From Cetobacterium sp. ZOR0034 (GTDB taxonomy: Bacteria; Fusobacteriota; Fusobacteriia; Fusobacteriales; Fusobacteriaceae), in assembly GCF_000799075.1 (NCBI RefSeq), contig NZ_JTLI01000003.1, forward strand, positions 1 to 48,017: a DNA stretch of 48,017 nucleotides. Reading direction: 5' to 3'. Below the pieces are notes generated by a model. The model was not told the DNA's origin, ran no database searches, and saw only the letters and a program-made list of their open reading frames with translations. Shown one piece after another: positions 14,543-32,591 of the stretch. The stretch's first letter is position 1, and every line of letters starts with the position of its first letter. A program made the translations under genes and the position numbers.

Positions 14543-14556
14543 AATATCCTCCTGAA

Positions 14557-15288: not shown

Positions 15289-15313
15289 AGATAAACCCTC
15301 CTTTGAAAGTAAA

Positions 15314-15754: not shown

Positions 15755-15850
15755 GATAATAGTAAAAATATTTTATAAAAATAAAATTACGCAGAAAGAA
15801 ATTAAATAGTTAATAAAAATGGCTGATTTTATTGGGATCAGTCTTTTTTT
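15755..15850 (+). promoter_or_regulatory. Candidate promoter and leader hairpin of the defence operon
   Basis: A -10-like GATAAT lies at 15755-15760 without a clear -35. Further on, GGCTGAT (15821-15827) pairs with ATCAGTC (15837-15843), followed by seven T, just 18 nt before the desulfurase start. A terminator in this place would attenuate the operon or end a short leader RNA. The remainder of 15736-15868 is AT-rich with no open frame. Confidence 0.5.
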
Positions 15851-15868: not shown

Positions 15869-16996
15869 ATGATTTATTATGATAATGCATCAACAACATA
15901 TCCTAAATTTAGTAGTGTTTATGAAGAAACTATGAAACTATATAGAGAAGTAGGGATTAATTTTAGTAGAAATAATTCAGATAAAAGTAGAAATGCCAGA
16001 GTTATAAAGGAAAATTTAATAGATAACATAAAAAAAATATTCTCAACAAAAAATGAAGTTATATTAAATTCTTCATCAACATTTTCATGTAATGAGATAA
16101 TATTCGGACTAAATTATAACAATATAAAAACAATTTATATTTCACCTTTCGAACACAACTCAATTTATAGAGCTATAAAAAAAATATCAAAAGAAAAAAA
16201 TATAGAATTAAAAATTTTAAAATTTAAAAAATTTGAATTAGATATTGAAGATATGAAATTACAATTTATGTCTCAAAAACCAGATCTGATTATACTTAAT
16301 CATGCTTCCAATGTTTTTGGAAACATTTTACCTGTTCGTGATATTTTTGAGGCTGGAAAAATTTATAATGCAATTACAGTTTTAGATGCAAGTCAAACAG
16401 GAGGTGTTTTAGATTTTTCTGAGATTTCTGGATTGGCAGATTTTATAGTATTTGCAGGTCATAAAAATTTATATGGTCCTTCAGGAATAGGAGGATATAT
16501 TTATAATAAAAAAATTTCTCTAAATCCTCTATTATATGGTGGAACAGGATTTAAATCTGAAGATGAAGAAATGCCAGAGGAGTTACCTGAAAGATTTGAA
16601 GCTGGAAGTCCAAATATTTTAGGGATGATAGGACTTAAAATAGCAACAGATGAATTGATAGAGATAGGAATAGAAAATATAAGATCAAAAAAAGAGAATA
16701 ATTTCAAAAATTTATATGATCTTTTAGAGGAGTATTCATATGATATAAAAATATACTCAGAAAAAGAGAATAATATAGGAGTTTTATCGATAACTGCTTT
16801 TGATTACTCACCTCAAGAGTTAGAAGAGATTATGAATGACAACGAGATTATAACAAGGAGAGGGATGCATTGTGCACCGCTTGCTCATCATCATATAGGA
16901 ACTCAGGATGGAGGAACACTTAGGTTTTCAGTAAGTTACTTTAATAATGATGAAAATTTAGAAGTGTTAAGAGAAACTTTGGATAGTTTATTTTAG
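15869..16996 (+). CDS. Cysteine desulfurase of the phosphorothioation operon (DndA/SspA/IscS-like)
   Basis: This PLP enzyme of 375 aa takes sulfur from cysteine and holds it as a persulfide. The PLP Lys199 is in FAGHKNLYGPSG and the catalytic Cys335 in RRGMHCAPLAHHH. The N-terminus MIYYDNASTTYPKF is typical of the family. As the first gene of a run with DndC/SspD-, DndD- and SspE-like proteins, it most likely supplies sulfur for DNA backbone modification rather than for general Fe-S assembly. AGAAGGAG precedes the ATG. It is 8 nt from the next gene. The enzyme class is certain; the role is inferred from neighbours. Confidence 0.88.
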   Translation: MIYYDNASTTYPKFSSVYEETMKLYREVGINFSRNNSDKSRNARVIKENLIDNIKKIFSTKNEVILNSSSTFSCNEIIFGLNYNNIKTIYISPFEHNSIYRAIKKISKEKNIELKILKFKKFELDIEDMKLQFMSQKPDLIILNHASNVFGNILPVRDIFEAGKIYNAITVLDASQTGGVLDFSEISGLADFIVFAGHKNLYGPSGIGGYIYNKKISLNPLLYGGTGFKSEDEEMPEELPERFEAGSPNILGMIGLKIATDELIEIGIENIRSKKENNFKNLYDLLEEYSYDIKIYSEKENNIGVLSITAFDYSPQELEEIMNDNEIITRRGMHCAPLAHHHIGTQDGGTLRFSVSYFNNDENLEVLRETLDSLF

Positions 16997-17004
16997 GAGA
17001 GGTT

Positions 17005-19644
17005 ATGTTAAATAAAATTAAAAGTATATTTAAAGATGAAGAGTTAGAGAGAGAAATAGAACGTTTAAAAATGGATTTAATAGAAAAGGAATTTCTTTAT
17101 AATGAACTTTTAAAAACAAATATTATTTCTCTTCAAAAAAATAAGGAATTAGAAAAGAGTTTAATTGAAGAAAGAAAAAGAAATGAAAATTTAAAAGATG
17201 AGTATACGAATAAAATCATTGTTGAAATGGATTTGGTTAAAGAATTAAAAAATGAAAAAGTAGAGTTTGAAAAAGAGATATCAGTTTTAAAAGCAGAATT
17301 TCCAAAACTAGAAGCTGCTTATTCTGATGAATATCAAAAACGTTTTAAAGCAAAATTGAAATTAGAAGAAGAAAAATTAGAAAAAAAGATTTTAGAACTT
17401 CAAAATGAATATTCTAAATATTTTTCAGAAGAAACAGAAAAATTTAAACTAAAGATTGAAAGCATAGAGAAAGAGAAAAATGAGTTATATATAAAAACTA
17501 AAGAGATTCAAAAAAATTTTGAAAGACAGAAAGTAGACCTCCAAAAGAGTTTACTTTTAGAAAAGTCAGCTAAAGAAAATCTATCAAAAGAAATATTAAG
17601 TTTAAAAGATAAGTTAACAAAATTAGAAGAGTTAAAAAATTTAAATTATAATTTGAAAGAAGCAAAGCAGGAAGAGCTGTTAGAGTTACTAGAGAAGTTA
17701 AAATTAGAAGAGTTAAAGATAAAAGATTTGACTGCTAGCTATGAATTAAAATTGAAAAAAGAGTTAGAAAAGCTAGAGCAAGAAAAACTAAAGAAAATTA
17801 ATGTGTTGAAAGAGTCAGAGGTTTTAAGAAATAAACTTATTATGTTTACTAAAATAGAAAAAGAATTGATAGATTTAAGAAGAGTCAAAGCTATCAATAA
17901 CCAAGAAAAAGAAATATTATCTAAGCAGAAAGATTCATTATCTGAAGAATTAAAGAATTTAAACCAGAAATTAATTAAAAGTGAAGATTTGAGAAAAAAA
18001 TTAGAAATTAAAAATTTAGAAGAGTTAAGAATAAAAGATAAATTGTTAAAAGAAACAACAGAATTAGATAAAAAATTAAAAATAGAATTGGACAAACAAA
18101 AAAATGAAATACAAACAACTCAATCAAAATTGAATTCGCTTATTATAAATGAAGAGCAAGTTAAAATGGAAGAGTGGAATATAAAATCTTATACGAAAGA
18201 TGACTGGTATAAACTGTATGAAATAGCTAAAGCATTAAAAGTAAAAGAAAATATTGTAAAAGATTTATTCGTATTATGGAGATATAAAGCAACAAATTTA
18301 AAAATATCTGATAGCCAGTATGGTGTAATTTTAAAAAATTATTTTGAATTACGTGAAGTTATAACAAAATTTGAAGTGAAGAAATATGGTGTAAATAATA
18401 CTAAAATGAATTTAAAGAAAGAGAATTCAATAGTTGATTTGCTGAATAAAGTAGAAAAAGAGTTGTTGTATTTAAGAGAGGTAAGAACTAAAGAAAATCA
18501 GGAAAAAGAGAGATTAGCTAGAGAGAGGGATTCATTAATTCAAGAAATAGAGAGTTTTAATAGTAAGTTGAAAGAAGTAAAACTATCAATGTCAGAGGAG
18601 ATAAAAGAGTTATCGGATAAATTAAAAGTAGAAGAGTTAAAAGTAAAAGATTTGACAAGTAATTACGAATTGAAACTGAAAAAAGAGTTAGAAAAGCTAG
18701 AGTTGGAAAAGTTGGAGAAAGAAAAATTATCTAAAGAGAGAGATTCGTTATATCAAGAGGTAGAGAATTTAAATTTCAGCTTGAAAGAAGTAAAGTCATC
18801 AATATCAAAAGAGATAAAAGATTTGACTCCAAAAGAAACTGAAATAACAAAAGATGATGAGCAAAATATAAATTTAGAAATACATATGGTAGACGAAAAA
18901 AAGGCAGATAAATTAGTTGAAACTAACAAACAAAATCTTTTAAGTAGATGGGCAGATAAAGATAAGTTTTTGGAATATAAGGATAATTTAACAGAGTTAT
19001 TAAAAACCTTTAATGGAAATGATTTTAAAGAGATGTATTTAGAAGGTAAGAAAAGAGGAGTTTTAAAATCTCTTAAAGATAGAGATTTTAGCAATATTAT
19101 AACTCGTTTAAAATTGAAACTACCTTTAACAACTATGAGTTTAGAGAAAATAGAAGATTTTTATGAAGGATTAATGAATGATATTTATTCACAAGAGTTC
19201 TCATTGGTAAAAGAAGATGTAGAAAGTACTAAAGAGAGTGAAGAGAAAATAAATGCAGAAGATGAAAATAAATTTGAACGAGAAGAATTTGATATAGAAT
19301 CTTATACAGCAAAGGATTGGTATAGATTTTATCAGATAGCTCAAGAGTTTAAAGTGAAAGATTATCTTCAAAAAGCAATTTTTACTTTATGGAAATATGA
19401 AGAAAGAGATTTGATGATATCAGATAGTCAATATGCAACGATTAGGAGAAATTATTCGGAGTTATATGAGGTTATAAAGAAGTTTGAGTCTGAGAAAAAT
19501 AAAATAGGTATAAACAACAAGATTACAGAGTTAGTTATTGATAAATATACCGAAAATAAAATATTAAAACACGAAATTGAAAAAAAATCTGAAAATTCAA
19601 AAGTAATAGAGTTGGATCAAAATATTGCAGATATATTATTCTAA
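17005..19644 (+). CDS. Unknown coiled-coil protein with a duplicated C-terminal-type module, 879 aa
   Basis: I do not recognise a family. Residues 1-385 and about 475-640 are Glu/Lys/Leu-rich heptads, that is, long coiled coil. A globular module of about 78 residues occurs twice, at 389-466 and 760-838. Both copies share the order (E/D)SYT..DWY..Y.IA...KVK, LW.Y, L.ISDSQY, and end in IKKFE/ITKFE. A separate globular region at about 655-730 starts LLSRWADKDKFLEYKDNL. The coiled coil also carries a repeated 33-residue segment (encoded at 17692-17790 and 18616-18714). No nuclease, ATPase or membrane motif is visible. Position as second gene, 8 nt after the desulfurase and 15 nt before the helicase, says it belongs to the defence operon. 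A scaffold or sensor role is a guess. Confidence 0.85.
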   Translation: MLNKIKSIFKDEELEREIERLKMDLIEKEFLYNELLKTNIISLQKNKELEKSLIEERKRNENLKDEYTNKIIVEMDLVKELKNEKVEFEKEISVLKAEFPKLEAAYSDEYQKRFKAKLKLEEEKLEKKILELQNEYSKYFSEETEKFKLKIESIEKEKNELYIKTKEIQKNFERQKVDLQKSLLLEKSAKENLSKEILSLKDKLTKLEELKNLNYNLKEAKQEELLELLEKLKLEELKIKDLTASYELKLKKELEKLEQEKLKKINVLKESEVLRNKLIMFTKIEKELIDLRRVKAINNQEKEILSKQKDSLSEELKNLNQKLIKSEDLRKKLEIKNLEELRIKDKLLKETTELDKKLKIELDKQKNEIQTTQSKLNSLIINEEQVKMEEWNIKSYTKDDWYKLYEIAKALKVKENIVKDLFVLWRYKATNLKISDSQYGVILKNYFELREVITKFEVKKYGVNNTKMNLKKENSIVDLLNKVEKELLYLREVRTKENQEKERLARERDSLIQEIESFNSKLKEVKLSMSEEIKELSDKLKVEELKVKDLTSNYELKLKKELEKLELEKLEKEKLSKERDSLYQEVENLNFSLKEVKSSISKEIKDLTPKETEITKDDEQNINLEIHMVDEKKADKLVETNKQNLLSRWADKDKFLEYKDNLTELLKTFNGNDFKEMYLEGKKRGVLKSLKDRDFSNIITRLKLKLPLTTMSLEKIEDFYEGLMNDIYSQEFSLVKEDVESTKESEEKINAEDENKFEREEFDIESYTAKDWYRFYQIAQEFKVKDYLQKAIFTLWKYEERDLMISDSQYATIRRNYSELYEVIKKFESEKNKIGINNKITELVIDKYTENKILKHEIEKKSENSKVIELDQNIADILF

Positions 19645-19659
19645 AAAAGGAGAAGTTAA

Positions 19660-21774
19660 GTGAATTTATTTAAAGAGTTAGATTTGAAAACCTCTTATAG
19701 AAGTGATACAGACAACATATATTGTGATTTTTTAGAAAAATGTTTAAAAAATTCTATTTCATATGATAGAGCTGTAGGATATTTTACGAGTGATAGTTTA
19801 TATCTATTATTAGAAGGAGTAGAAAATCTTATAAAAAATAATGGAATAATGAGAGTGGTTACATCTCCACAACTTTCAGAAAAAGATATCTTAACTCTTA
19901 AAACTTTACATAATAAAGAAATTGTTAATCTGAAAATAGAGGAAGAGCTCCAAAAATTTTACTCAGGGAAAGAAGAAGATACAACTAAAATATTTTCATG
20001 GTTAGTTAGTAAAGATATACTTCAAATAAAAATTGCGTATCAAAAAGATTATATTGGAATTTATCATGAAAAGTTTGGGATATTTAAAGATTCAGAAGGG
20101 AATAAAATAGCTTTTTCTGGTTCTGTTAACGAAACCATAGGTGGGATGAGTAGAAACTTTGAATCGATAGATGTTTATTCTTCATCTGATGGAAAAAAAG
20201 ATTTAGAAAGAATAGAGAATAAAGAGATAGATTTTGAAAAACTATGGGGAAATAAGACAAATAAAATAGAAGTTATTGATATAGATGAGGCAATTAAAAA
20301 AAAAATAATCTCGAGAGCTCCAACGAATGAAGAAGTAAGTGTTATATTAAACAGAAAATTTGAGAAAAATAGATTAAATGGATTAGTAAAGCCAGAATGG
20401 TTCAGTGTGAGAGAGTATCAAAAAAATGCTTTTGAAAGTTGGAAAAATAATCAGTTAAAAGGGATATTAGAGATGGCAACAGGAAGTGGAAAAACACTTA
20501 CAGCATTAAATATAATGACAGAGATATCAAAAGACAAAAGGATGTTCTTTGTAGTTGTGTGTCCACAAACGTTTCTAGTTAGACAATGGGCTGAAGAAAT
20601 TAAGGCATTTGGAGTAAAATCAGTTATTTGTAATTCAGAAAACAAAAATTGGAAAGATCAAATAAATGCTAAAATCTTTTTATTAAACGAAGACCAGATA
20701 GATGTTACAGTTGCAGTTGTAACAAATAAAACATTACAAAACGCATCTTTTTTAAGAGCTTTAAAAAGAGTAAAAAAAGAGATGATGATTATTGTAGATG
20801 AGTGTCATAATATTGGAAGTTTTAGCTTTGAAGAGTTTTTAGAGAGAGATGAGTTGAAAAAAAATTCGATAAGACTAGGTTTGTCAGCAACTCCTGATAG
20901 GCAAGGAGATCAAAAAGGAAATGAAGTTATTGAAAAGTATCTAGGAAAAGTTATTTTTCAGTTTTCATTAGATGATGCTATTAAAGGAGGATTTTTAACT
21001 AATTATAAATATTTTCCTTACTTTGTAACTTTAACAGAAGATGAAGAGAGAGAATATATAGAACTTAGCAAAAAAATAGCATCGCTAAGCTTCTCTAAAA
21101 ACTCTAACTTGAAAGATAAAAAGAAAGAATCGACACCTTTGGAGATGTTACTTTTTAAGAGAGCTCGATTGTTGAATTTGACTAATAATAAAATATTGAA
21201 ACTGCTAGAAGTTATTGATGAGTTTAGTTTTAATAATTTGATTTATGTTGGAGCTGGAAAAAGCAAAGAAGAAAGCGAAGATAGAGAACAAAAGTTTATA
21301 GATAAAACGATAGAAACAGTTTCTGAAAAAATGGACTTTAAACTTATGAAATTTACCTCTGAAGAATCTAAGAATGAAAGAGAAATTGTTATACAAAAGT
21401 TTAAAGAGAAGGATATAAATGCTGTTGTGGCTATCAAATGTTTAGATGAGGGAATAAATATTCCATCAATTGAAAGAGCATATATTTTGGGAAGTACAGG
21501 TAATTATAGAGAGTATGTTCAAAGAAGAGGTAGAATACTTAGAAAATCAGAAAATAAGAGTATTGCCGAGATACATGATTTTATAGTTATACCTAGAAGT
21601 TATGAAAGTTATCAACCAATTCAAGATTGTAATTTTAATTTTGAAAAAAAATTAGTGGAAAATGAATTGAAAAGATTAGAAGAATATAATTCATTAGCTT
21701 TAAATAAAAATAGAAATGAAAGTGAGTTAAGAAAAATTAAAGAATTTTATGGAATAGGAGAGGGTAATAAATGA
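19660..21774 (+). CDS. PLD-nuclease/DEAD-type helicase, probable phosphorothioation-linked restriction protein
   Basis: This protein of 704 aa combines a phospholipase-D-like nuclease domain and a superfamily-2 helicase. The PLD motif is HEKFGIFKD at residue 136 with FSGSVNET after it. Helicase motifs are ATGSGKT (273), DECH (380-383), LGLSATPDR and the motif VI YVQRRGRILR. Helicases of this build are found beside dnd genes as restriction factors. It starts with GTG at 19660, preceded by AAAGGAGAAG. Its stop overlaps the next gene's start (ATGA). It probably unwinds or translocates on DNA and nicks unmodified invading DNA. The domains are clear; target choice is inferred. Confidence 0.88.
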   Translation: MNLFKELDLKTSYRSDTDNIYCDFLEKCLKNSISYDRAVGYFTSDSLYLLLEGVENLIKNNGIMRVVTSPQLSEKDILTLKTLHNKEIVNLKIEEELQKFYSGKEEDTTKIFSWLVSKDILQIKIAYQKDYIGIYHEKFGIFKDSEGNKIAFSGSVNETIGGMSRNFESIDVYSSSDGKKDLERIENKEIDFEKLWGNKTNKIEVIDIDEAIKKKIISRAPTNEEVSVILNRKFEKNRLNGLVKPEWFSVREYQKNAFESWKNNQLKGILEMATGSGKTLTALNIMTEISKDKRMFFVVVCPQTFLVRQWAEEIKAFGVKSVICNSENKNWKDQINAKIFLLNEDQIDVTVAVVTNKTLQNASFLRALKRVKKEMMIIVDECHNIGSFSFEEFLERDELKKNSIRLGLSATPDRQGDQKGNEVIEKYLGKVIFQFSLDDAIKGGFLTNYKYFPYFVTLTEDEEREYIELSKKIASLSFSKNSNLKDKKKESTPLEMLLFKRARLLNLTNNKILKLLEVIDEFSFNNLIYVGAGKSKEESEDREQKFIDKTIETVSEKMDFKLMKFTSEESKNEREIVIQKFKEKDINAVVAIKCLDEGINIPSIERAYILGSTGNYREYVQRRGRILRKSENKSIAEIHDFIVIPRSYESYQPIQDCNFNFEKKLVENELKRLEEYNSLALNKNRNESELRKIKEFYGIGEGNK

Positions 21775-21953
21775 GTGCAAAATCAAAAGGACAAGAGTTT
21801 TTTGCAAGTTTAACAAAAGAAGAACAAAATGCGATTATTCAAATAATAAAACTAGAAAATGACCCAGATAGATTAACTAAAAAAGAGAGCACGATAACAG
21901 TTAAACAAATTAAAGAGATAATCGGACAATATTCAATGGAGTGGAATGACTAA
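21771..21953 (+). CDS. Small conserved-context protein, 60 aa
   Basis: This is a short soluble protein of mixed charge (begins MSAKSKGQEFFASL), predicted helical, with no recognisable motif. Its start overlaps the helicase stop in ATGA and its stop overlaps the next start in TAATG, so it is translated together with both. That tight coupling is the main reason to accept it as real. It could be a subunit linking the helicase and the SMC-like ATPase. I cannot assign a function. Confidence 0.7.
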   Translation: MSAKSKGQEFFASLTKEEQNAIIQIIKLENDPDRLTKKESTITVKQIKEIIGQYSMEWND

Positions 21954-23995
21954 TGATATTTAAAAGTATAATTTTAGAAAATTTTAGACCTTATTATGGG
22001 AAAGTTAAATTAGAATTTTGTAATGGTGAAAAAAACATTACACTTTTAAAAGCTGAAAATGGATCAGGAAAAACAACTTTATTACAAGCAATAAGATGGG
22101 GATTATATGGTGGAAATTTAGATTTAACATCAGGAGATCCTAAAAAGTTTGGTGCAAGCAGTTTTATAAATAAAAAATATTTAGAAGAAACAAAAGGAAA
22201 AACATATGCTAAAGTAGAGTTGAATATAGTAGGAAAAGTTTCGGAAGAAAAAGAAGAGCAGGAATATAAAATTATAAGACAGATAAATTTTGAAAATGAT
22301 GTGTATATTGGAGTAGATTTGATTTTAGAATCAAATGCTGGGAAAATAAATCAAAGATCGGAAGCAGGGTGCCAAGAAATAATAAATCGTTTACTACCAA
22401 AAGAAATTAATTTTTTCATTGATGGAGAAAGACTAGAAAAAATAGCTCCTGAAAAAGAAAATCAAAGAAAAGTAAAAAAAGAAAGCTTAGAAGCAATAGA
22501 GGAATCTATAAATAGAGTGCTAGGAATAAAAAGTTTAGAAAATGCGGTTACAGATACTGCAAAGGTATATAGAGATTTAGAAAAAGAATATTCTGAAAGT
22601 AGTAGTGCTAATAAGGATATTGTCGAGTTAGAACAGAAAGTAAAAAAAATAGAAAAAGAATTTGAAGATAAGTTACAAGAGAAAGAGGAAAAACAAAAGG
22701 AAACAGAGCTTCTAGATATAGAAAAAGAAGAGTTGAGCAACAGAATAGATGAAATTTTATTGATAAGTCAAGAAGATGAAAAAAATAAGAAAGTAGTAGA
22801 AATGTTGCAAGATGAAAAAAAAGAGTTAGAAAAATCATTAGAAGCAATTCAGAAAAAGTATAAGGAATTTTTATCAATAAAAGGTGTCGAAGCGATTGCA
22901 CCAAAAATTTTAAATAATGCTTTTAAAGTAATAGAAATAAAGAAAGATAAGGGCGAAATTCCATCGAGATATGAAAAAGAGTTCTTAGAAGAATTGATAC
23001 ATTTAAAAGAGTGTATATGTGGGGCATCTTTAGTTAGTCATACAGATAATTACAGAAAAATAATGCAAAAGTTAGAAAATGCAGCAACAAGAGAAAATAG
23101 AGAGAAAGTTAGCGAAGTGTACTTTATGTTGAGAGATATAGCAAGTGAGGATATTTCAGAGAATGTTAAGCTAATAAAATTAGAAATATCTAAGATTCAG
23201 CATAGAATAGATTATATTGAGCAAGAGTTAGAAGTGTTAGTAAAAGATAGTAACTACGACTTCCAAGTGGAGTTGCAAAATATAAAAAATATATTAATTA
23301 GTAAAGAAGAAATAAAAAAAACACTTCATAAAAGTATTGGAGCCTTAGAAGTTGAGTTAGAAAGAATAGAAAAAGAATTAATTTCAATTAGAATAGAGAA
23401 AACTGAAGCAGATAAAAAGAATATAAAGAGTAAAAGAGAGAGAGAAAAAAGAGATTTTGCGAAAAAGATAATGCTGAATCTTGAAACTCTAAAAAAATAC
23501 AAAGAAGCTCAAGGTAGAGAAGGGCTAAAGAGTAAAATAGAAGAAGTTTACTCTAAAATAAATAAAAAGGGTTATAAAGTTGAATTGACAGAAGAGTTTG
23601 ATTTTAAAGTTTTTGATATTGATGGAAAAGAAGCAGGAATGTCAAAAGGAGAAGCAAAAAATAAAGCTCTAAGTTTCATAGGTGGATTAGTTTACTACGC
23701 AAAAGAGTTAAATAAAGAAAAAAATAAATCTGATTTGGATTCAGATGGAGGAATATACCCACTTGTATTGGATGCACCTTATGGTGATTTAGACAATGAA
23801 TATAGACTAGATTTTACTAAAATGTTACCGGTTTTATCAGAACAAATAATAGTCATGGTTTCATCAGGGCAATGGAATTCAAAGATAGAAGATGTTGTTA
23901 AAGATAGAATAGGAAAAGTATATACTTTAGAAAACGAAAGAAGAACGGGAATAGATAAAAGATACGATATTACAAGAATAAAAGAGGAGATTTAA
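21953..23995 (+). CDS. DndD-like SMC/RecN-type ATPase
   Basis: This 680-aa ATPase has an ABC head split by a long coiled coil. Walker A is AENGSGKTT near residue 35-42. The hinge carries a CICG zinc-hook-like pair at 354-357. The signature region MSKGEAKNKALSFIGGLVYYA and Walker B YPLVLDAPYGDLD (about residue 604) are near the C-terminus. This is the DndD layout; DndD assists phosphorothioation and binds DNA with ATP hydrolysis. Here it lies with the PLD-helicase, not next to the DndC-like gene, so it may instead serve the restriction half. Plain SbcC-like proteins are the alternative. Confidence 0.88.
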   Translation: MIFKSIILENFRPYYGKVKLEFCNGEKNITLLKAENGSGKTTLLQAIRWGLYGGNLDLTSGDPKKFGASSFINKKYLEETKGKTYAKVELNIVGKVSEEKEEQEYKIIRQINFENDVYIGVDLILESNAGKINQRSEAGCQEIINRLLPKEINFFIDGERLEKIAPEKENQRKVKKESLEAIEESINRVLGIKSLENAVTDTAKVYRDLEKEYSESSSANKDIVELEQKVKKIEKEFEDKLQEKEEKQKETELLDIEKEELSNRIDEILLISQEDEKNKKVVEMLQDEKKELEKSLEAIQKKYKEFLSIKGVEAIAPKILNNAFKVIEIKKDKGEIPSRYEKEFLEELIHLKECICGASLVSHTDNYRKIMQKLENAATRENREKVSEVYFMLRDIASEDISENVKLIKLEISKIQHRIDYIEQELEVLVKDSNYDFQVELQNIKNILISKEEIKKTLHKSIGALEVELERIEKELISIRIEKTEADKKNIKSKREREKRDFAKKIMLNLETLKKYKEAQGREGLKSKIEEVYSKINKKGYKVELTEEFDFKVFDIDGKEAGMSKGEAKNKALSFIGGLVYYAKELNKEKNKSDLDSDGGIYPLVLDAPYGDLDNEYRLDFTKMLPVLSEQIIVMVSSGQWNSKIEDVVKDRIGKVYTLENERRTGIDKRYDITRIKEEI

Positions 23996-23996
23996 A

Positions 23997-24527: not shown

Positions 24528-24542
24528 AAAGTGGAGGATACA

Positions 24543-26639
24543 ATGAAAGTAAAGAGGTTAAAGGAGATATTTCAAGACGAAGATGAAGGAAGAATAATAC
24601 TTCCAAATTTCCAAAGAGATTTTGTCTGGGATACAAAGCAACAAAAAGAGTTGTTAGCAACATTTTTGGTGGAATTACCTATAAGTAGTATTCTTTTGTT
24701 AAAAGGAAGTTGCAACGATTTTAATTATAGAAAGTTGTGCTATTCAAACGAAGTTGAATGTGCTAAAGATGAATGTATGTATCTTTTAGATGGTCAACAA
24801 AGAATGTCAACTTTAAAAGCTATGTTTGTTGATTTATTTAAAGGTGAATGGGAGAATAGTTACTCAGATTTATATGGGAAAATAAAGAATAGATGGTTTT
24901 TAAAAGTATCAACTTCAGATGATGAAACAGAGGATATATTTGGTTACAATACTTTAGATTTTGATTATGGTAGTTTGAGAAAATATACACCAAGTGAAAT
25001 AGTGGATTTTATTCAAGAGTATAAAATTCATAAAACAACAAATACAAATTTTTGGTATCATCCAAAATTTAAGTTTGAAAAAACAACTGATTCAGGAAAG
25101 ATAAACGAGTTTGCAAATTTATGTTCTGATCAAAATCTTATTCCACTATTTGGATTAAATGAGAGTAATAAACTTCAGGATAAAGTTGTGGAAAAGATTG
25201 CAAATAAAAGAGCAGATAAAATAATAGATGAGATAGAAGAGTACGAAAACATAAAAAAAATAGAGAAAATAAAATGTTATTTTAAGGATTTTTCTTCTGA
25301 AGTAGATGAAGAAGAATTAATAGATGAATTTGAAACAAGAAAAAATAGTTTAAAGTATGAATTGTCAATGAAATGGAAAACTAAAATTATAAATTTCTTA
25401 GATAAATTAGTAGAACAAGAGGTTTCGATAATTGAAATAGAAAAAAATGAGATAAGTAGAGGAATAGCCATATTCGAAACAATAAATAAAGGAGGAACTC
25501 CTCTAGATAACTATGATTTAATTGTTGCCAAAGCAGCAAAAGACTCTAAATTAGAATCTTTAACTCAAAGAATAAAAAGAATCGTAGAGCAGGGAATAGA
25601 GTTGCCAGAAGATTTTAGAGAAAAAAATTGGAATGGAGTGAATTTTGGTTTAATCGAAGGTCAAGAGGAGCTAAATAAAAGATTTAAAAATCAATATTTA
25701 AATCTACTATCAATTTTTTCTCATGTAAAAGATCCTTTAAAACTAAAATTAGATCATATAAAAAGAGATAAAATATTTGAAATATCTTCAGTAGATATAA
25801 ATTCATTAACTGAAAAAACAATAGTTTCTTTATTAAGAGCATTAGCATTTGTTAATACTAGATTAGGAATAACGAAATTTGGTAACTTCTCATTTGAATT
25901 AATGGTTTTACCTATGGCTTATATATTTTCTGAAGATAAAAATTGGAATGATAAAAAAGTATTAGATAAAGTAGAGTATTGGTATTGGACATCGATATTT
26001 ATAGGAAGATATAGAGAACGTCAAAATATAAGAACCGTAGATGATTTAAAAACTATTTACAAATGGATTGTTCAAGAAAATTTAGACGATTTGAAAGTTA
26101 AAGAATTAGTTTATGAAAATATAGCGAAGGTATTAAATGTAGAGGAGTACTCAGATTTAGAAACATTATTAAATGATTCTAAAACTCCATCTCCAGTTAG
26201 TAAAAATTTATTATATTATATTTTAAGTTTAGAACCATTTGATTTATTACCAGAGAATCATTCGAAAAAACTTAAAGCATTTGAGATAACAGAAGCATCA
26301 GTAGAACTAGAAGATCATCATTTAATACCTTTAGGAACAGGAACTAAATATGGAGAACTGAGTTCTAAAATAAGAAACGATAAGAATCATATTTTAAATA
26401 GTGTTTTAAATAGGACTCTTATAAGTAAAGAAGCAAATAGAAAAATTAGAGATATGGGATTTGAAAAGTATATGCAAGATGTCCAAGATATATCTAGAAT
26501 AGGTCAGATGATAAATAAAGACCTATTACAAAAAGAAAATGAACAACAAGATGAATATTATAGAAGAGTTTTACAAAATAGATTTAATACAATAAAAGAT
26601 ACATTGTTAAGAGAGCTTCACTATTTAAGTGAAAGATAG
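24543..26639 (+). CDS. SspE-like DUF262/DUF1524 (GmrSD-type) restriction protein
   Basis: This protein of 698 aa has an N-terminal DUF262 domain with LPNFQRDFVWD and the DGQQR motif (83-87), which handles NTP and senses modification in SspE. A middle helical part follows, and then a C-terminal HNH-type nuclease like DUF1524, with EDHHLIPL (His592/593) and NHILNSVLNRTLIS. SspE nicks unmodified phage DNA when stimulated by phosphorothioated DNA. DndB also has a DGQxR motif (DGQHR) but lacks this nuclease end, so SspE/GmrSD is the better match. I start at the ATG at 24543, since GGAGG at 24533-24537 lies 5 nt before it. A GTG at 24531 is in the same frame. Confidence 0.85.
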   Translation: MKVKRLKEIFQDEDEGRIILPNFQRDFVWDTKQQKELLATFLVELPISSILLLKGSCNDFNYRKLCYSNEVECAKDECMYLLDGQQRMSTLKAMFVDLFKGEWENSYSDLYGKIKNRWFLKVSTSDDETEDIFGYNTLDFDYGSLRKYTPSEIVDFIQEYKIHKTTNTNFWYHPKFKFEKTTDSGKINEFANLCSDQNLIPLFGLNESNKLQDKVVEKIANKRADKIIDEIEEYENIKKIEKIKCYFKDFSSEVDEEELIDEFETRKNSLKYELSMKWKTKIINFLDKLVEQEVSIIEIEKNEISRGIAIFETINKGGTPLDNYDLIVAKAAKDSKLESLTQRIKRIVEQGIELPEDFREKNWNGVNFGLIEGQEELNKRFKNQYLNLLSIFSHVKDPLKLKLDHIKRDKIFEISSVDINSLTEKTIVSLLRALAFVNTRLGITKFGNFSFELMVLPMAYIFSEDKNWNDKKVLDKVEYWYWTSIFIGRYRERQNIRTVDDLKTIYKWIVQENLDDLKVKELVYENIAKVLNVEEYSDLETLLNDSKTPSPVSKNLLYYILSLEPFDLLPENHSKKLKAFEITEASVELEDHHLIPLGTGTKYGELSSKIRNDKNHILNSVLNRTLISKEANRKIRDMGFEKYMQDVQDISRIGQMINKDLLQKENEQQDEYYRRVLQNRFNTIKDTLLRELHYLSER

Positions 26640-26656
26640 AAAATGAGGATGTAAAA

Positions 26657-28300
26657 ATGGAAAAAAAAGATGTTAAAATTTGTTGGAATGAAATAGATAA
26701 TGTTCCAGTAATTTTAGAAGAGGGTGTGACATCATCATTAAAAGAGGTCGCAAAAGATTTAAGACCAGTATTTTTACAAGAAAAATGGTTATTAATGAAC
26801 TTGTTTCCAGATAGATTAGATGATAAATTCTTAAAAAAATCAGTTTGGGCAACAAAACAGAATAGATATATAGTTGACGGTGAGATGGTTGATTTAATAG
26901 CAACATCAAAATTTAAAAAAATGACTCAATCAGAAATTGAAAATTTAAGGAAAGAAGTGATGAAGTTTTCAATAACAGAGGAGCATTTAGAAGTTGAAAG
27001 AGATTGCTTCGATAAATTTATAAAAGCAAACAGTAGTCGTTTTAATATACTGGTAAAAAGTGAGAATAGAGACGAAGAGGGAGAGTTCATAGGAGCAATT
27101 CCTTTTATCGTTGAAAATGCAGAAAAATATAAAAATAGAATGATGCTAGTATCTTTCTCTGGTGGAAAAGATTCTACAGTTGTTTCTCATTTGGTAAGAT
27201 TGGCTTTAAATAATCAAAGTATTTTACATATATTTGGAGATACAACATTAGAACTGCCTAAGTCATATGAATATGTAGAGAGGTTTAAAGAGGAAAATCC
27301 ATTTACACCATTTTTCGAAGAGAGAAATGAAGAGAATAATTTCTTCGAAATGTGTGAAGAGATTGGACCACCAAGTAGAGTTAAAAGCTGGTGTTGCTCA
27401 ATATTTAAAACTGGACCAATGGGAACAACACTTGCAAATTTTGATGAAAATATAATAACATTTTTAGGTCTTAGAAGAGGAGAGTCAGCGTCTAGATCTA
27501 AATATAAAAAAGTATCTCAAAGTCCAAAAATATTAAAACAGATGGTAGCTTCTCCAATTATAGATTGGTGTGACTTAGATGTTTGGTTATATATGCTAAC
27601 AGAAGAATTAGATTTTAATGATTCATATAGACAAGGATTTGCAAGAGTAGGATGTTGGGTATGTCCAAATAACGGTTCATGGTCTGAACTTCTTTCATCA
27701 ATATATAATTCAGAGGAATATGATAAATGGTATTCATTTTTAATTAATTTTTCTAAAAGAATAGGGAAGTTAGATTATGAGGATTATGTTAAAGATGGTA
27801 AATGGAAAGCAAGACAAGGTGGAGATGGATTAGAAAAAAGTACAGAGATAATTGTAGAGGCTAAAGAGTGTATCAATGAGAAAAATTCAAAAACGTTTGT
27901 ATTAAATAAATCTGTAAACGAAGATTTTATTCAACTTTTCAAGCCGTTTGGAACTATGAAGATATTTGAAAAAAACAAAGCGGTTGAAATAATTTTAATG
28001 GATAGAGGCAACACTCCAATCTTCAAGTTATCTTATAGAGTTGAGGGAACGGAAGTTAAAGTTACAATCATGAAAACTGATGATAAATATATATTCAATA
28101 AAATTCAAAAGCAGTTTAATAAATTTAATAGTTGTCTTTACTGTCAAGGGTGTAACTCGGCTTGTCCGACAGGAGCTATATACGTTAGCAACGGAAAATA
28201 CATAGTAGATGAAAATAAGTGTGTAAACTGCTTAAAATGTATAGATAAATTTGATTCGGGATGTTTAATAGCATCAGCATTAAAAATAAAAAAGAGGTAG
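26657..28300 (+). CDS. DndC/SspD-like PP-loop sulfurtransferase with C-terminal 2[4Fe-4S] ferredoxin domain
   Basis: This protein of 547 aa belongs to the PAPS-reductase/ATP-pyrophosphatase group. The PP-loop SGGKDST is at 168-174, and the family's later Cys motifs (WCCSIFKTGPM, GCWVCPNNGSW) are present. In DndC and SspD this domain activates the DNA backbone for sulfur insertion. The C-terminal 55 residues add a bacterial ferredoxin fold: CLYCQGCNSACP (from residue 493) and CVNCLKC followed by GC. This gives eight cysteines for two [4Fe-4S] clusters. The tail could pass electrons or sulfur. It is followed 2 nt later by the DUF4007 gene. It is the key gene marking this as a phosphorothioation-type locus. 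Confidence 0.9.
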   Translation: MEKKDVKICWNEIDNVPVILEEGVTSSLKEVAKDLRPVFLQEKWLLMNLFPDRLDDKFLKKSVWATKQNRYIVDGEMVDLIATSKFKKMTQSEIENLRKEVMKFSITEEHLEVERDCFDKFIKANSSRFNILVKSENRDEEGEFIGAIPFIVENAEKYKNRMMLVSFSGGKDSTVVSHLVRLALNNQSILHIFGDTTLELPKSYEYVERFKEENPFTPFFEERNEENNFFEMCEEIGPPSRVKSWCCSIFKTGPMGTTLANFDENIITFLGLRRGESASRSKYKKVSQSPKILKQMVASPIIDWCDLDVWLYMLTEELDFNDSYRQGFARVGCWVCPNNGSWSELLSSIYNSEEYDKWYSFLINFSKRIGKLDYEDYVKDGKWKARQGGDGLEKSTEIIVEAKECINEKNSKTFVLNKSVNEDFIQLFKPFGTMKIFEKNKAVEIILMDRGNTPIFKLSYRVEGTEVKVTIMKTDDKYIFNKIQKQFNKFNSCLYCQGCNSACPTGAIYVSNGKYIVDENKCVNCLKCIDKFDSGCLIASALKIKKR

Positions 28301-28302
28301 AA

Positions 28303-29190
28303 ATGAAAATTATAATGAGTGGTCATAGTTCTTTTTATATCAGAGAGAACTGGATAAATAAACTATTTTACAAGGTGTTTGAACAAGATGTAAATAAAAA
28401 AATAGAAAGTTCATTTTTCTCTAAAGCTAACTTAATAAATGCAATAGATATCTTGGGTGTAGGAAGTAAGATGGTAGAATCTATAAAGTTTTGGGCTGAT
28501 TTTTTAGGTATTCTTGAAAAAAAAGCTAAAAGTATAGAGTTAAGTGAAAGTATGAAAGTCGTTTTTGAATTAGATCCATACTTACAAAATAATAACAGTT
28601 TATGGATTTTACATTCAAATATTTTTTTGAAAGAAAAAGAGAAAGCTCTAGTTTGGGAGAAAGCTTTTTCATTACCTGAAGGTGCTACATTTACAAAAGA
28701 GAGTTTGGAAAAGAGTATAGAGCTTTACTATATAGAGAATGGAAGTAAGTTTTCAAGCAGAATGGTTTTAGATACAATAAATGTTTTTATAAAAACATAT
28801 TATAAAGATTCTAAAGAGAGTGTTAATCCAGAAGAGAATATAGTTTCTCCATTTGTAAGATTAAATTATTTAAAAGAGATTAATGGTGAGTTTAAATTTC
28901 AAAATATGGAGAGAAAAGATATTTCTGATTACGTGATATACTATTTACTTTATAAAAAATCTAAAAAGATGGGAATTGTAAATCAAACAACAATAAAAGA
29001 AGCTTACGAGTATGTAAATAAAATAGTGAAGATGAGTTATCTTAATTTTGAGAAAACTATACAGGAGTTAGAGTTCCAAAATGAGTTATCTGTAGATAGA
29101 GCAGCAGGACTACAAAATATAACTATAGATACAAAGAGATATTCAGAGAAAGAAGTCGTAAAAAAAATACTAGAAAGTGAGTTAGTTTGA
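28303..29190 (+). CDS. DUF4007 family protein (SspB-like candidate)
   Basis: This protein of 295 aa has the DUF4007 N-terminal pattern SGHSSFYIRENWINKLFYKV. From memory, DUF4007 proteins accompany PP-loop phosphorothioation genes, and the SspB nickase of the Ssp system is of this kind; I could not check this. No classical nuclease motif stands out. I start at the ATG at 28303, preceded by AGAGGTAG. The frame is open to 28261, but that overlaps the end of the previous gene. The stop overlaps the next start as TGATG. It probably makes or places the nick where sulfur is inserted. Confidence 0.8.
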   Translation: MKIIMSGHSSFYIRENWINKLFYKVFEQDVNKKIESSFFSKANLINAIDILGVGSKMVESIKFWADFLGILEKKAKSIELSESMKVVFELDPYLQNNNSLWILHSNIFLKEKEKALVWEKAFSLPEGATFTKESLEKSIELYYIENGSKFSSRMVLDTINVFIKTYYKDSKESVNPEENIVSPFVRLNYLKEINGEFKFQNMERKDISDYVIYYLLYKKSKKMGIVNQTTIKEAYEYVNKIVKMSYLNFEKTIQELEFQNELSVDRAAGLQNITIDTKRYSEKEVVKKILESELV

Positions 29191-32100
29191 TGGATAAAGT
29201 AATAGAGATTACAAAAGTAGGGTTTTCAGTAAATATTGAGAGAGATTACAAAGATAACGAGAAAATTAATTCATATATTCCTACAGAGAAAAATATAAAA
29301 CTTTTAGCAAAACTTACAAAAGGAGTTTTGAATAAAAAAAATGGATCATATATTTTATCAGGAGCATATGGAAGTGGAAAGTCATATTTTCTTTCGGTAT
29401 TACTAAATCTTTTATCAGTAGAAAATAAAAGTAAGATAGATATATTTTTAAATAGAGCTGAGGAAAAGTTTCCAATAAAAGAGATATATTCAAAATTAAA
29501 TGAACAAAAATATTTAGTAGTATTTGCAAAAGATAGATACTCTAACTATGAAAAATCAGTGCTACACGGGATACTAGAAGTTATAAAAAAGGAAGATTTG
29601 AATATAAGTTTAAATCTGGAAAGTAAAATAATTTTAGATAAAATTGAATCTTGGAAAAAGAACTATTCAGATATAATTTTTAAATTTGAAGAAGCTTTAT
29701 TAAAAAGAGATACAGATTTAGAAAAAATAGAGCTTCAGCTTCAAAATAATAACTCTAATGCTATAAAAATATTTAAAGAGTTATATAAAGAGATTTTTTA
29801 TGGAGAAGAATTTGTAAACTATGAATCTAATTTCCAAATTGTAGACTTACTGAAAGATTTTGAGGAGAAAGTTATTGAAACGACATCATATAAAGGTGTT
29901 ATCTATGTTTTTGATGAGTTTGGAAGATATTTGGAATCAAATATAAACAAAGTCGATGTAAAAGAGATACAGGATATGGCAGAGTACTGTAATTCTGAGG
30001 CTTCATCATATCTATTTTTAATAACTCATAAAGATATTTTCCAGTATACAAATAAATTGAATAGAGAGGATAATATATTTGAATGGGAAAAAGTAAGTGG
30101 AAGATTTCATAAAGAGCAGATGACTTATGACAAAGTTACTTCTTTGAGTATATTGTCACAAGTAGTTTATAAAAAAGAGGGGTTTAAAGAATTCTATAAT
30201 CAGAATATAGATAAGTTTAATAGATATAATAGAAATCTTGGTGAATCTAATATATTAACTGAAAATTTGGATAAGGCAATAAAAGATTTTTATCCTTTAA
30301 ACTATTTAACAGCATACATATTACCTGAGTTATCTCAAAAGATTGCCCAAAATGAAAGAACTATGTTTGCTTTTCTAAGTTCTGGAGATGTTAAAGGTTT
30401 AGAGAGTGTATTAAAAGATGATTTTATAGTGGGACTAGATAGAATATACGATTATTTTGAAGAAAACTTTAAGTTTTTAAATCATGAAAGTTTAGAGTAT
30501 AAAAGTTATTTCAATACTAAAAAAGCTTTAAACTTAGTAAAAGATTTTAATCATATAAAATTCTTGAAAAGTTTAGGAATGTTACAGATATACAATAGAC
30601 CAATTGAGATCCCACCAACAAAGGAGATTTTAAAGTTATCTTTAAATATAGATGAGATTGAATTAGAGAAAATTTTAAAAGATTTAGAAAATGAGAATAT
30701 AATAAGTTTTAAAAGAAATAAGAGACATTACAAGATTGTAGAGGATAGCGATATAAATATTCAAAAGGAGATTAAAGAGTATGTAATAAACAAATTACAC
30801 AGTCTAAATTTGACTGAATCATTGAATAAATTTATAGAGCTCGATTTCTATTATCCTGTTAAATACAATTTTGAAATGGATATAACAAGATATTTCCAGC
30901 AAATATATTTAGATTGTTCAAACATAGGTTATTTAGATAAGTTGAAAGATAAAGTAGATGGTAGGGTTGTTTATTTAACAAATATATCAAAAGCTTTAGA
31001 TTATGATTCTATAAAGACCTCTTTAAAATTAAAAGATATTATTATTGTATCAAATATAAAAAATTCTAATTTAAAAATAGATGGAATTTTAAAGGAGTTA
31101 GAAGCCATTGAATGTTTAGCTTTACTAGAGAAAAATTATAACAATAAGGCTATTTTAGAGGAGTATAGTTTATATAAAGAGGAATTGATTCAAACTTTAA
31201 AAGAGGAACTGAATAGGTATTTCTCTAAAGATGAGAGAGAGATAACGTACTTAGGAAAAACTCAAATAGAGAAAGATTTACTTCAAGTGACATATTATTA
31301 TTTAAATGAAAAATTTAAGAATTATATTCCTATAAACTATGAGTTGTTAAATAAAGATAAAATAAGCACTCCAATGAAAAAGGTTAGGACGACACTTCTT
31401 CAAATGTTGTTAGAAGGAGATAAAAGCTTATTAGAGAATAGTTTCTATTTAGAAACAGGAGCGATAAATTCAGTAGCGAGAACTATTTTAAGTAAAATTG
31501 TATCTATTGATGAAGCAGAGATAATTTTTAAAGATAAATGGCAAGACTTAAGTGTTGAAATTTTAAATAGATTACAAAATGGAGAGTGTGAATTAGAAGA
31601 GCTGTATTTAGATTATACAAGTGATAAAAGAGCTTATGGATTAAGAAGTGGTATTTTTACTTTATTTTTAGGTGTACTTTTAATAAAAAATAAAAATAGT
31701 CTTTTAATAATTGAAAATCAAAATAAACAAAAAGAAAATTTAAGTGGAGATCTGATTGAAAAAATCGAAAAAAATCCTGAGAAGTACTATCTGACTTATG
31801 TTGAGAAAAGTGAAGAAGAGGAAAGATATTTAAATGAGTTGAAGAAAAGTTTAGGAATCTACTTTGTAGATAGTTTAGATATAGAGAACGGTATAGTTGA
31901 AGGATTAAAGAGTTACTTCTACTCTTTAAGTAGATTGATAAACAGAGTTTCATTAGATAATTGTAAACTACTTTCAAAAGTATTTAAAGGTTTATTCCAA
32001 GATAAGGATCCGTATAAGTTTTTATTTGAAGAGTTACCTAAAAGAGCAAGAGCTAAGAATTATGATGAGGTTATCTCTTTAATAAATACTGAGATGACTT

Positions 32101-32591
32101 ATTTAGAGGATGAAAAATTAAAAATTGAAGAGCAATTAAAATTATTAGTAGTCGATGGATTAAAAGGAAGTACAGATTTAAAAGAAGCTTTAGAGAACTG
32201 GCAGAAACAAGATAATATATTGGATAACGGGATTAAAAGTTGGTTAAAAAAATATAGATATATTGGTGATAGAAGATTCATACTGGATATTACTGCTAAA
32301 ATAAAAGGCTTTAGCTATGAAAATTGGTCAAACTTAGAGGATATAACTGATTTTGAAAATAAAATGAAAGAGTTTTTAAGTATAAAGGAAAAGGTTGAGA
32401 ATGTTGAGACTGAAAACTCTGTTCAAATTATATCAAATGGAGAGAGGGTTGTATTAGAAATCATGAAAGAGCATACACCGATAGGAAAGATGCTGAAGAC
32501 AAAGTTAGAAGCGACTATTAAATCTATGGGTATGGCTCTTAAAGAGGAAGAGAAAAAGTCGATTTTATTAGAGATATTGAAGGATATGTAG
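29190..32591 (+). CDS. Large P-loop ATPase (SspC-like candidate; BrxC/PglY-type build)
   Basis: This protein of 1133 aa has one N-terminal ATPase domain: Walker A GAYGSGKSYFL (about residue 58-68) and Walker B VIYVFDEFGRYLES (near 240). The remaining 800 residues are mostly helical, without another motif I can name. Such proteins occur next to DUF4007 genes and resemble large ATPases of the BREX (BrxC/PglY) kind. By position it is the SspC equivalent of the modification complex. I start at the ATG at 29190, which overlaps the stop of the DUF4007 gene; a TTG just before it is the alternative. It is the last gene of the 16.7-kb operon. Confidence 0.82.
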   Translation: MDKVIEITKVGFSVNIERDYKDNEKINSYIPTEKNIKLLAKLTKGVLNKKNGSYILSGAYGSGKSYFLSVLLNLLSVENKSKIDIFLNRAEEKFPIKEIYSKLNEQKYLVVFAKDRYSNYEKSVLHGILEVIKKEDLNISLNLESKIILDKIESWKKNYSDIIFKFEEALLKRDTDLEKIELQLQNNNSNAIKIFKELYKEIFYGEEFVNYESNFQIVDLLKDFEEKVIETTSYKGVIYVFDEFGRYLESNINKVDVKEIQDMAEYCNSEASSYLFLITHKDIFQYTNKLNREDNIFEWEKVSGRFHKEQMTYDKVTSLSILSQVVYKKEGFKEFYNQNIDKFNRYNRNLGESNILTENLDKAIKDFYPLNYLTAYILPELSQKIAQNERTMFAFLSSGDVKGLESVLKDDFIVGLDRIYDYFEENFKFLNHESLEYKSYFNTKKALNLVKDFNHIKFLKSLGMLQIYNRPIEIPPTKEILKLSLNIDEIELEKILKDLENENIISFKRNKRHYKIVEDSDINIQKEIKEYVINKLHSLNLTESLNKFIELDFYYPVKYNFEMDITRYFQQIYLDCSNIGYLDKLKDKVDGRVVYLTNISKALDYDSIKTSLKLKDIIIVSNIKNSNLKIDGILKELEAIECLALLEKNYNNKAILEEYSLYKEELIQTLKEELNRYFSKDEREITYLGKTQIEKDLLQVTYYYLNEKFKNYIPINYELLNKDKISTPMKKVRTTLLQMLLEGDKSLLENSFYLETGAINSVARTILSKIVSIDEAEIIFKDKWQDLSVEILNRLQNGECELEELYLDYTSDKRAYGLRSGIFTLFLGVLLIKNKNSLLIIENQNKQKENLSGDLIEKIEKNPEKYYLTYVEKSEEEERYLNELKKSLGIYFVDSLDIENGIVEGLKSYFYSLSRLINRVSLDNCKLLSKVFKGLFQDKDPYKFLFEELPKRARAKNYDEVISLINTEMTYLEDEKLKIEEQLKLLVVDGLKGSTDLKEALENWQKQDNILDNGIKSWLKKYRYIGDRRFILDITAKIKGFSYENWSNLEDITDFENKMKEFLSIKEKVENVETENSVQIISNGERVVLEIMKEHTPIGKMLKTKLEATIKSMGMALKEEEKKSILLEILKDM

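What the first reader, a model, noticed from the sequence alone, without database searches (positions are those of the whole stretch)
15869..32591. Composite phosphorothioation-type defence operon mixing Dnd-like and Ssp-like parts
Ten co-directional genes, many overlapping by 1-4 nt, span 16.7 kb. There is a desulfurase, PP-loop DndC/SspD-like protein, DUF4007 protein and large ATPase (modification-type set). There is an SspE-like DUF262/HNH protein, and also a PLD-helicase, DndD-like SMC ATPase and two small proteins (second restriction-type set). Known Dnd and Ssp systems usually carry one restriction arm. Here two appear to be built into one operon, together with an unknown 879-aa protein. 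I see no dndB or dndE. Motifs are read from sequence; the roles and the comparison with known systems are from memory.
Basis: partly seen in the sequence, partly recalled or inferred. Interest (0 to 1): 0.88.

Follow-up and report, generated by a model that had tools for sequence, protein, structure and literature searches.

The report
Sulfur-marked DNA defence with swappable weapons
A fish-gut-type bacterium (Cetobacterium) carries an anti-virus operon in which one set of enzymes, predicted to mark the cell's own DNA with sulfur, is joined to two different attack modules, and relatives show that the attack modules can be swapped or lost while the marking set stays.

Summary
In detail: ten co-directional genes fill 15869-32591 with junctions of -4 to +17 nt. 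They resolve into SspABCD-type phosphorothioate (PT) writer genes (g1, g8, g9, g10), a complete PbeABCD effector (g3-g6), a DUF262/HNH protein of SspE type (g7) and a repetitive coiled-coil protein (g2).

PbeABCD is published as the partner of Dnd PT writers, or solitary or beside methylases. I found no held paper that pairs it with Ssp. "Two restriction arms on one writer" is not new in principle: SspE plus SspFGH, and PbeAC plus DndFGH, are published.

New here is the comparison. In Fusobacteriaceae the stretch between sspA and sspD is a swap site: g2+PbeABCD+SspE-like (window, two relatives; a third without g2), SspE-like alone (one), SspFGH (one), or unknown large HTH proteins (two). A second family lineage with order sspDBCA also carries PbeABCD, once with the SspE-like gene. 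Complete Ssp+Pbe sets lie on two alphaproteobacterial plasmids.

g7 is SspE-like but not proven SspE: its PT-sensing Tyr is Phe, and BrxU scores better. PglZ is absent, so this is not type-4 BREX. DNA sulfur and defence are untested. Verdict: new variant of a known kind.

The parts
15821..15850 (+). Leader hairpin plus T-run (terminator-like) upstream of sspA: possible attenuator of the operon
   Evidence: 10-pair stem followed by T7; present before sspA in all five Cetobacterium operons; 4 of 11 pairs change on both sides in 5 sequences, 96.4% of cells paired against 27-62% for slid versions; no Rfam match
15869..16996 (+). g1: SspA-type cysteine desulfurase (375 aa)
   Evidence: Pfam Aminotran_5 9.1e-58; PADLOC DndA 4.1e-22, SspA 6.4e-22; AGHK (PLP Lys) and RRGMHC (catalytic Cys) motifs
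17005..19644 (+). g2: 879-aa repetitive coiled-coil accessory protein, function unknown
   Evidence: no PADLOC, Pfam or NCBIfam hit; internal duplication of a domain of about 65 aa; homologues of 440 aa (G002) and 944 aa (G006), absent in G007; conserved C-terminus ADILF
19660..21774 (+). g3: PbeA (704 aa), HKD/PLD nuclease domain fused to SF2 helicase
   Evidence: PADLOC PbeA 2.6e-224; ResIII 7.9e-27 and weak PLDc_2; HEK..GSVN, GSGKT, DECH, QRRGR motifs
21771..21953 (+). g4: PbeB-position small protein (60 aa)
   Evidence: position and size; same gene in G002, G006, G007; no profile hit
21953..23995 (+). g5: PbeC (680 aa), CxC Zn-hook ABC ATPase related to DndD
   Evidence: PADLOC PbeC E=0, 1496 bits; TIGR03185 DndD 99.8 bits, below its cut-off of 245.85; CICG hook, NGSGKT, PLVLDAP
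23997..24527 (+). g6: PbeD (176 aa), the reported DndE cognate
   Evidence: position; alignable with G029, G023, G056, L039 and L040 PbeD; TIGR04062 dnd_assoc_4 hits 6 of the 9 aligned members but not this one
24543..26639 (+). g7: SspE-like DUF262-DUF1524 (GmrSD/ParB-type NTPase plus HNH nickase), 698 aa from corrected ATG (ORF opens at GTG 24531)
   Evidence: GmrSD_N 2.3e-23, GmrSD_C 0.0071, below cut-off; invariant PNFQR, DGQQR, HH..P over 7 Ssp-linked homologues; PDB profile: BrxU 3.6e-8, SspE 0.083; start corrected
26657..28300 (+). g8: SspD (547 aa), PP-loop/PAPS-reductase with C-terminal 4Fe-4S domain; BrxP-like subset
   Evidence: PAPS_reduct 2.7e-32; PADLOC BrxP 1.4e-88, SspD 1e-11, DndC 3.3e-11; SGGKDS and CxxCxxCxxxC
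28303..29190 (+). g9: SspB (DUF4007), probable start 28303
   Evidence: DUF4007 6.1e-48; PADLOC SspB 1.8e-37; GAGG before ATG 28303
29187..32591 (+). g10: SspC ATPase (1134 aa; start TTG 29187 or ATG 29190)
   Evidence: PADLOC SspC 5.4e-85; Walker A GAYGSGKS and Walker B VIYVFDE

Best explanation
A phosphorothioate-based anti-phage operon. SspA takes sulfur from cysteine; SspD (with a Fe-S domain), SspB and SspC place it in the backbone of the host's own DNA, probably on one strand. Two effector modules use that mark. The SspE-like DUF262-HNH protein (g7) is a nucleotide-hydrolysing nickase that should be switched by sulfur-marked self DNA and nick unmarked phage DNA. PbeABCD (g3-g6), an ABC-ATPase/DndE-like scanner with an HKD-nuclease-helicase, should block replication of, or damage, unmarked invader DNA. 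The writer is the fixed chassis; effectors occupy a variable slot between sspA and sspD and are gained and lost singly. g2 is a dispensable, fast-changing accessory of the Pbe block. Shown here: gene content, motifs, conserved order, modular presence/absence. Inferred from published relatives: sulfur incorporation, PT sensing, phage resistance.
For: Family profiles and intact catalytic motifs for every writer component and for PbeA and PbeC. The full order sspA-(g2)-pbeABCD-sspE-sspD-sspB-sspC is kept in G002, G006 and G007. G010, the closest relative (SspD 99%, SspC 95%), lacks exactly the g2+pbeABCD block but keeps sspE and the whole writer, so Pbe is not needed for the writer to be retained. 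G020 has SspF, SspG and SspH at the same place between sspA and sspD. G029 carries SspDBCA-PbeABCD-SspE-like in permuted order on a divergent core (SspC 32% identity to the window but SspE-like 57%), so the SspE-like gene moved separately. G023 and G056 have SspDBCA-PbeABCD without SspE. Complete Ssp+Pbe sets lie on plasmids of Rhizobium indigoferae and a Sphingomonadaceae bacterium. Each function is demonstrated for relatives (PMC8092258, PMC6459918, PMC9646914). A type II Zorya lies next door, a defence-island setting.
Against: No measurement of sulfur in DNA or of phage resistance. g7 is not matched by PADLOC's SspE model, is closer to BrxU by profile, and has Phe where studied SspE/DndI have the PT-sensing Tyr (PMC9646914, PMC11662687). 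g6 itself hits no DndE or dnd_assoc_4 model, and its predicted structure was unusable. PbeABCD was characterised only with a Dnd writer, so its use of an Ssp mark is inferred.
Confidence: 0.77

Rival explanations
1. Two neighbouring but independent systems: Ssp writer + SspE-like forms one PT system, and PbeABCD is a separate unit that uses another mark (methylation) or none and merely sits inside the operon.
For: Over half of published pbeAC pairs lack dndCD, and 155 of 320 solitary ones lie near methyltransferases (PMC6459918); G010 lives without Pbe.
Against: Pbe genes are interleaved between sspA and the rest of the writer with -4 to +15 nt junctions and no methyltransferase lies in the operon. 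Pbe joins Ssp in at least three different gene orders (Cetobacterium, the sspDBCA lineage, alphaproteobacterial plasmids), which argues for function with Ssp.
Confidence: 0.12
2. g7 is a type IV GmrSD/BrxU-like nuclease against modified phage DNA rather than a PT reader; only Pbe is the PT-linked arm.
For: Profile nearer to BrxU (3.6e-8) than to SspE (0.083) in PDB sequences; Tyr-to-Phe at the PT-sensing position in all seven members; PADLOC SspE model hits only 2 of 7 members.
Against: The subfamily sits inside or beside ssp operons in seven loci with three different cores (Cetobacterium order, G029, G224), and remains as the only effector in G010. PNFQR keeps the hydrophobic residue and the invariant Gln, and DGQQR and HNH are intact.
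Confidence: 0.25
3. PbeC-PbeD (relatives of DndD-DndE) act as an extra specificity or loading factor of the writer, not as an effector.
For: PbeC/PbeD are described as sister to the DndD/DndE modification scaffold (PMC10853773).
Against: The writer is kept whole without Pbe in G010, G020, G024, G052, and PbeA brings a nuclease/helicase. In the archaeal system Pbe loss abolishes protection although the writer is separate (PMC6459918).
Confidence: 0.08
4. The cluster is a variant type-4 BREX system (BrxP/BrxC/PglZ/BrxL).
For: g8 best PADLOC hit is BrxP at 1.4e-88; type-4 BREX shares SspB/C/D homologues (PMC12839542).
Against: No PglZ anywhere in the 98% complete genome and no BrxL in the operon; PMC12839542 states that the same Fe-S arrangement occurs in a subset of SspD.
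Confidence: 0.03

Closest known systems
SspABCD-SspE (PT-sensing Ssp system; PMC9646914)
   Same: Writer set SspA/B/C/D all present; effector of DUF262-HNH architecture with DGQQR motif
   Different: Adds PbeABCD and g2; SspD carries N-terminal and Fe-S extensions; g7 has Phe for the PT-sensing Tyr and is outside PADLOC's SspE model
SspABCD-SspFGH, also with SspE (PMC8092258)
   Same: Two effectors on one Ssp writer; a relative (G020) carries SspFGH at the same place
   Different: Here the second effector is PbeABCD, unrelated to SspFGH
DndCDEA-PbeABCD (PMC6459918) / CxC-ABC ATPase systems (PMC10853773)
   Same: Complete PbeABCD in the order A-B-C-D with HKD-helicase, small protein, CxC ABC ATPase and a dnd_assoc_4-type protein
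   Different: Writer is Ssp, not Dnd; no DndC/DndD/DndB profile over cut-off in the operon; an SspE-like gene and g2 are added
Type-4 BREX (BrxP-BrxC-PglZ-BrxL; PMC12839542)
   Same: BrxP-like PAPS reductase with 4Fe-4S region, DUF4007, SspC/BrxC-type ATPase
   Different: No PglZ in the genome, no BrxL in the operon

Membership tests
SspABCD writer | Cysteine desulfurase with PLP lysine and catalytic cysteine (SspA) | tested here: met
SspABCD writer | DUF4007 protein (SspB) and SspC-type ATPase | tested here: met
   DUF4007 6.1e-48; SspB 1.8e-37; SspC 5.4e-85
SspABCD writer | PP-loop/PAPS-reductase SspD | tested here: met
   PAPS_reduct 2.7e-32, SGGKDS; SspD model only 1e-11, BrxP 1.4e-88, so it belongs to the extended Fe-S subset
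SspABCD writer | Single-strand PT (CpsCA or other motif) in host DNA | not testable with these tools
   needs mass spectrometry or PT sequencing
PbeABCD | PbeA: PLD/HKD plus SF2 helicase | tested here: met
   PADLOC PbeA 2.6e-224, HKD and helicase motifs
PbeABCD | PbeC: ABC ATPase with CxC hook | tested here: met
   PADLOC PbeC E=0; CICG at residue 354
PbeABCD | PbeB: small protein between PbeA and PbeC | tested here: met
   60-aa ORF 21771-21953, conserved in three relatives; by position and size only
PbeABCD | PbeD: DndE cognate | tested here: inconclusive
   alignable with dnd_assoc_4 members, 6 of 9 aligned proteins hit TIGR04062 but not g6; structure model unusable
PbeABCD | Adjacent DndCDEA writer (the characterised context) | tested here: not met
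   no DndC/DndD equivalog over cut-off in the operon; no second DndD in the genome; writer is Ssp
SspE | DUF262 NTPase with DGQQR and C-terminal HNH/DUF1524 | tested here: met
SspE | Tyr (Y30/Y63 in studied SspE; Y25 in DndI) in the PT-sensing patch | tested here: not met
   Phe27 (PNFQR) in all seven members; Gln kept
SspE | Match to PADLOC SspE profile | tested here: not met
   none at E<=1 for the window's protein; 2 of 7 homologues
SspE | PT-stimulated GTPase and nickase | not testable with these tools
   needs biochemistry
SspFGH | SspF, SspG and FtsK-like SspH | tested here: not met
   no such profile in the operon; found instead in G020
DndABCDE | DndB, DndC, DndD, DndE set | tested here: not met
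   no DndB hit; DndC and DndD models far below cut-off
Type-4 BREX | PglZ | tested here: not met
   no PglZ in the genome

The most novel reading that the evidence does not exclude
SspABCD is a general chassis with an exchangeable effector slot, and PbeABCD is an undescribed effector class of Ssp systems that can read the single-strand Ssp mark. That would account for part of the published SspBCD clusters that lack both SspE and SspFGH (PMC8092258). The same slot holds still unknown effectors (large HTH proteins in G024/G052), and g2 is a new accessory component.
Probability: 0.5. Interest if true: 0.7.

Novelty: new variant of a known kind. Interest (0 to 1): 0.6.

Why it matters
Most catalogued SspBCD writers (2,211 of 2,678 in PMC8092258) have no assigned effector. 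This locus and its relatives show one answer: a fixed writer with an exchangeable effector position, one occupant being PbeABCD, hitherto tied to Dnd. It makes a specific question testable: can Pbe read a single-strand PT mark made by a different writer? Natural variants offer ready comparisons: both effectors, SspE-like only, Pbe only, SspFGH only.

Tried and rejected
Second arm as SspFGH: rejected for the window, but found in the same slot in G020. BREX type 4, suggested by the strong BrxP hit: rejected by absence of PglZ. Ordinary sulfur metabolism: rejected by linkage to SspB/SspC/Pbe. Another DndD in the genome: none. PDB sequence searches with g7, g10 and the PbeD profile gave nothing useful. 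g2 in plasmids: none. Leader in Rfam: none. The idea that g2's conserved C-terminus (ADILF) mimics the SSB tail was looked at: the host SSB ends DEDEFPF, so the resemblance is weak and I do not claim it. The one genome-contig scan, with a single protein, returned only two Cetobacterium loci, so breadth rests on the genome search and plasmids.

Full report
OBSERVATION. Ten + strand ORFs fill 15869-32591. Start codons were adjusted from homologues and ribosome-binding sites: g7 begins at ATG 24543, g9 at ATG 28303, g10 possibly at ATG 29190. Junctions are then 8, 15, -4, -1, 1, 15, 17, 2 and -4 nt. A terminator-like hairpin lies 3' of the operon at 33002-33029 and another in the leader at 15821-15843.

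COMPONENTS. g1 is a class-V aminotransferase/cysteine desulfurase with DndA and SspA profile hits and both catalytic motifs. g8 is a PAPS-reductase/PP-loop protein with a 4Fe-4S C-terminus; its best PADLOC hit is BrxP (1.4e-88), then SspD (1e-11). PMC12839542 reports this Fe-S extended architecture both in type-4 BREX BrxP and in a subset of SspD. g9 is DUF4007/SspB and g10 is SspC. g3 and g5 are PbeA and PbeC at extreme significance (2.6e-224; E=0) with HKD, helicase, Walker and CxC-hook motifs. g4 and g6 fill the PbeB and PbeD positions and sizes (PMC6459918); g6 aligns with PbeD of other loci, and six of the nine aligned proteins hit TIGR04062 dnd_assoc_4, though g6 itself does not. PMC10853773 identifies PbeD as the DndE cognate. 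g7 is a DUF262-DUF1524 protein. g2 has no family hit.

g7 IN DETAIL. Seven Ssp-linked homologues share PNFQR, DGQQR and an HH..P HNH motif. SspE and DndI sense PT through a Tyr-Gln patch (Y30/Q31 in StSspE; Y25/Q26 in DndI); here the Tyr is Phe in all seven, the Gln is kept. A profile of the seven matches BrxU (7p9k, 3.6e-8) better than SspE (7drs/6jiv, 0.083), and PADLOC's SspE model misses the window's copy. I therefore call it SspE-like, a distinct Ssp-linked GmrSD subfamily, not SspE. If it is a PT reader, whether its resting state is silent (as SspE) or toxic without PT (as DndI) is open.

g2. 879 aa, very rich in Lys/Glu/Leu, coiled coil, with one domain of about 65 aa present twice (near residues 395-465 and 795-865). 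Among 100 genomes searched, homologues exist in only two besides the window's own: 944 aa in G006, with nearly identical coiled-coil repeats, and 440 aa in G002; G007 has Pbe but no g2. All three proteins end in ADILF. It is an accessory of the Pbe block; a scaffold or trigger-sensing role is a guess.

MODULARITY. In G010 the chromosomal flanks (89.8% identity), sspA (88%), sspE-DBC (95.6%) and Zorya (89.7%) all align, but window 16978-24533, exactly g2+pbeABCD, is missing. The higher identity of the sspE-DBC block than of its flanks suggests that it was exchanged by recombination with a break at the start of sspE (inference). G002, G006 and G007 keep the full order. In other genera of the family the place between sspA and sspD holds other genes: SspF-SspG-SspH plus two unknowns in G020 (PADLOC 1.9e-18, 4.1e-32, 1.4e-83; FtsK 5.5e-40), and 389+1070-aa or 970-aa proteins in G024 and G052, the large ones with Sigma70_r4-type HTH. 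A second family lineage has the order sspD-B-C-A followed by pbeABCD (G023, G056; G034 to its contig end), and in G029 also the SspE-like gene. Between window and G029 the SspE-like protein is 57% identical, while SspC, SspB, SspA, PbeA and PbeC are 29-42%: the SspE-like gene has its own history, so the triple combination was probably put together more than once.

RECURRENCE ELSEWHERE. Complete Ssp+Pbe sets are on a conjugative Rhizobium indigoferae plasmid (sspABCD convergent with pbe genes) and, as one co-directional run sspABCD-pbeABCD, on a Sphingomonadaceae plasmid. The pairing is not universal: of 16 DUF4007 loci in 389 genomes, the eight with Pbe are all Fusobacteriaceae, and of 20 loci fetched from one other family (f65) none has Pbe, while three have SspFGH-like genes. 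Shared ancestry explains part of the Fusobacteriaceae count; the different gene orders and the plasmids do not reduce to one event.

MECHANISM. Established for relatives: SspABCD makes single-strand PT; SspE's NTPase is stimulated by PT and licenses nicking (PMC9646914); PbeABCD stops viral replication only when PT is present and, unlike DndFGH, is harmless without it (PMC6459918). Inferred here: one Ssp mark licenses both arms. Both SspE and Pbe are described as silent without PT, which would let such effectors be gained or lost without killing the cell; the presence of SspFGH, which is toxic without PT (PMC8092258), in the same slot of G020 shows that this is not a requirement.

PRIOR KNOWLEDGE. 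Searches of the held papers for PbeABCD with SspBCD or SspABCD, and for PbeA/PbeC with SspB/SspD, found them listed side by side as alternatives in the passages read, not as a pair. A 2020 human-microbiome survey counted pbeA-D with 'PT-modifying genes' without separating dnd and ssp, so unnoticed pairs may be in its data (PMC7464106). Subscription papers, preprints and supplementary tables were not searchable. PADLOC already holds a PbeC model that fits g5 at 1496 bits, so close relatives of this protein are catalogued as parts even if the combination is not named.

VERDICT. What stands out is the Ssp-Pbe pairing and the exchangeable effector position.

Noticed in passing
33091-36581: Complete type II Zorya (ZorA 3.1e-73, ZorB 3e-92, ZorE HNH 5.6e-71 in PADLOC) directly downstream; also in G010. 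A defence island.
   Followed up: partly
15821-15850: Leader hairpin with T-run just before the sspA ribosome-binding site, conserved in five Cetobacterium operons with four covarying pairs: possible transcription attenuator of a PT operon; no Rfam family.
   Followed up: partly
L032:13467-17862 (-) and L034:12948-15860 (-): In G024 and G052 the slot between sspA and sspD holds 389+1070-aa or 970-aa proteins, the large ones with Sigma70_r4-type HTH and essentially no PADLOC match: candidate unknown effectors.
   Followed up: partly
L099, L101, L108, L112, L113, L114; also L018 and L019 (G024, G052): A second, divergent SspB-like (DUF4007), in most followed by a gene of about 155-185 aa, and an SspC-like large ATPase follow the main Ssp writer in several genomes: possibly another effector module.
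   Followed up: no
L041:16745-21324: Treponema saccharophilum plasmid: sspDBCA followed by helicase, ATPase and PLD-family genes, another likely effector set on an Ssp writer.
   Followed up: no
L053:975-6017 (-): G020: 271-aa and 1403-aa proteins of unknown role between SspH and SspD; the large one is a weak SspC relative.
   Followed up: no
13772-15330: Two minus-strand genes (arginine-deiminase/DDAH-like and SBP_bac_3) lie between the conserved vut_1 gene and sspA in the window but not in G010.
   Followed up: no
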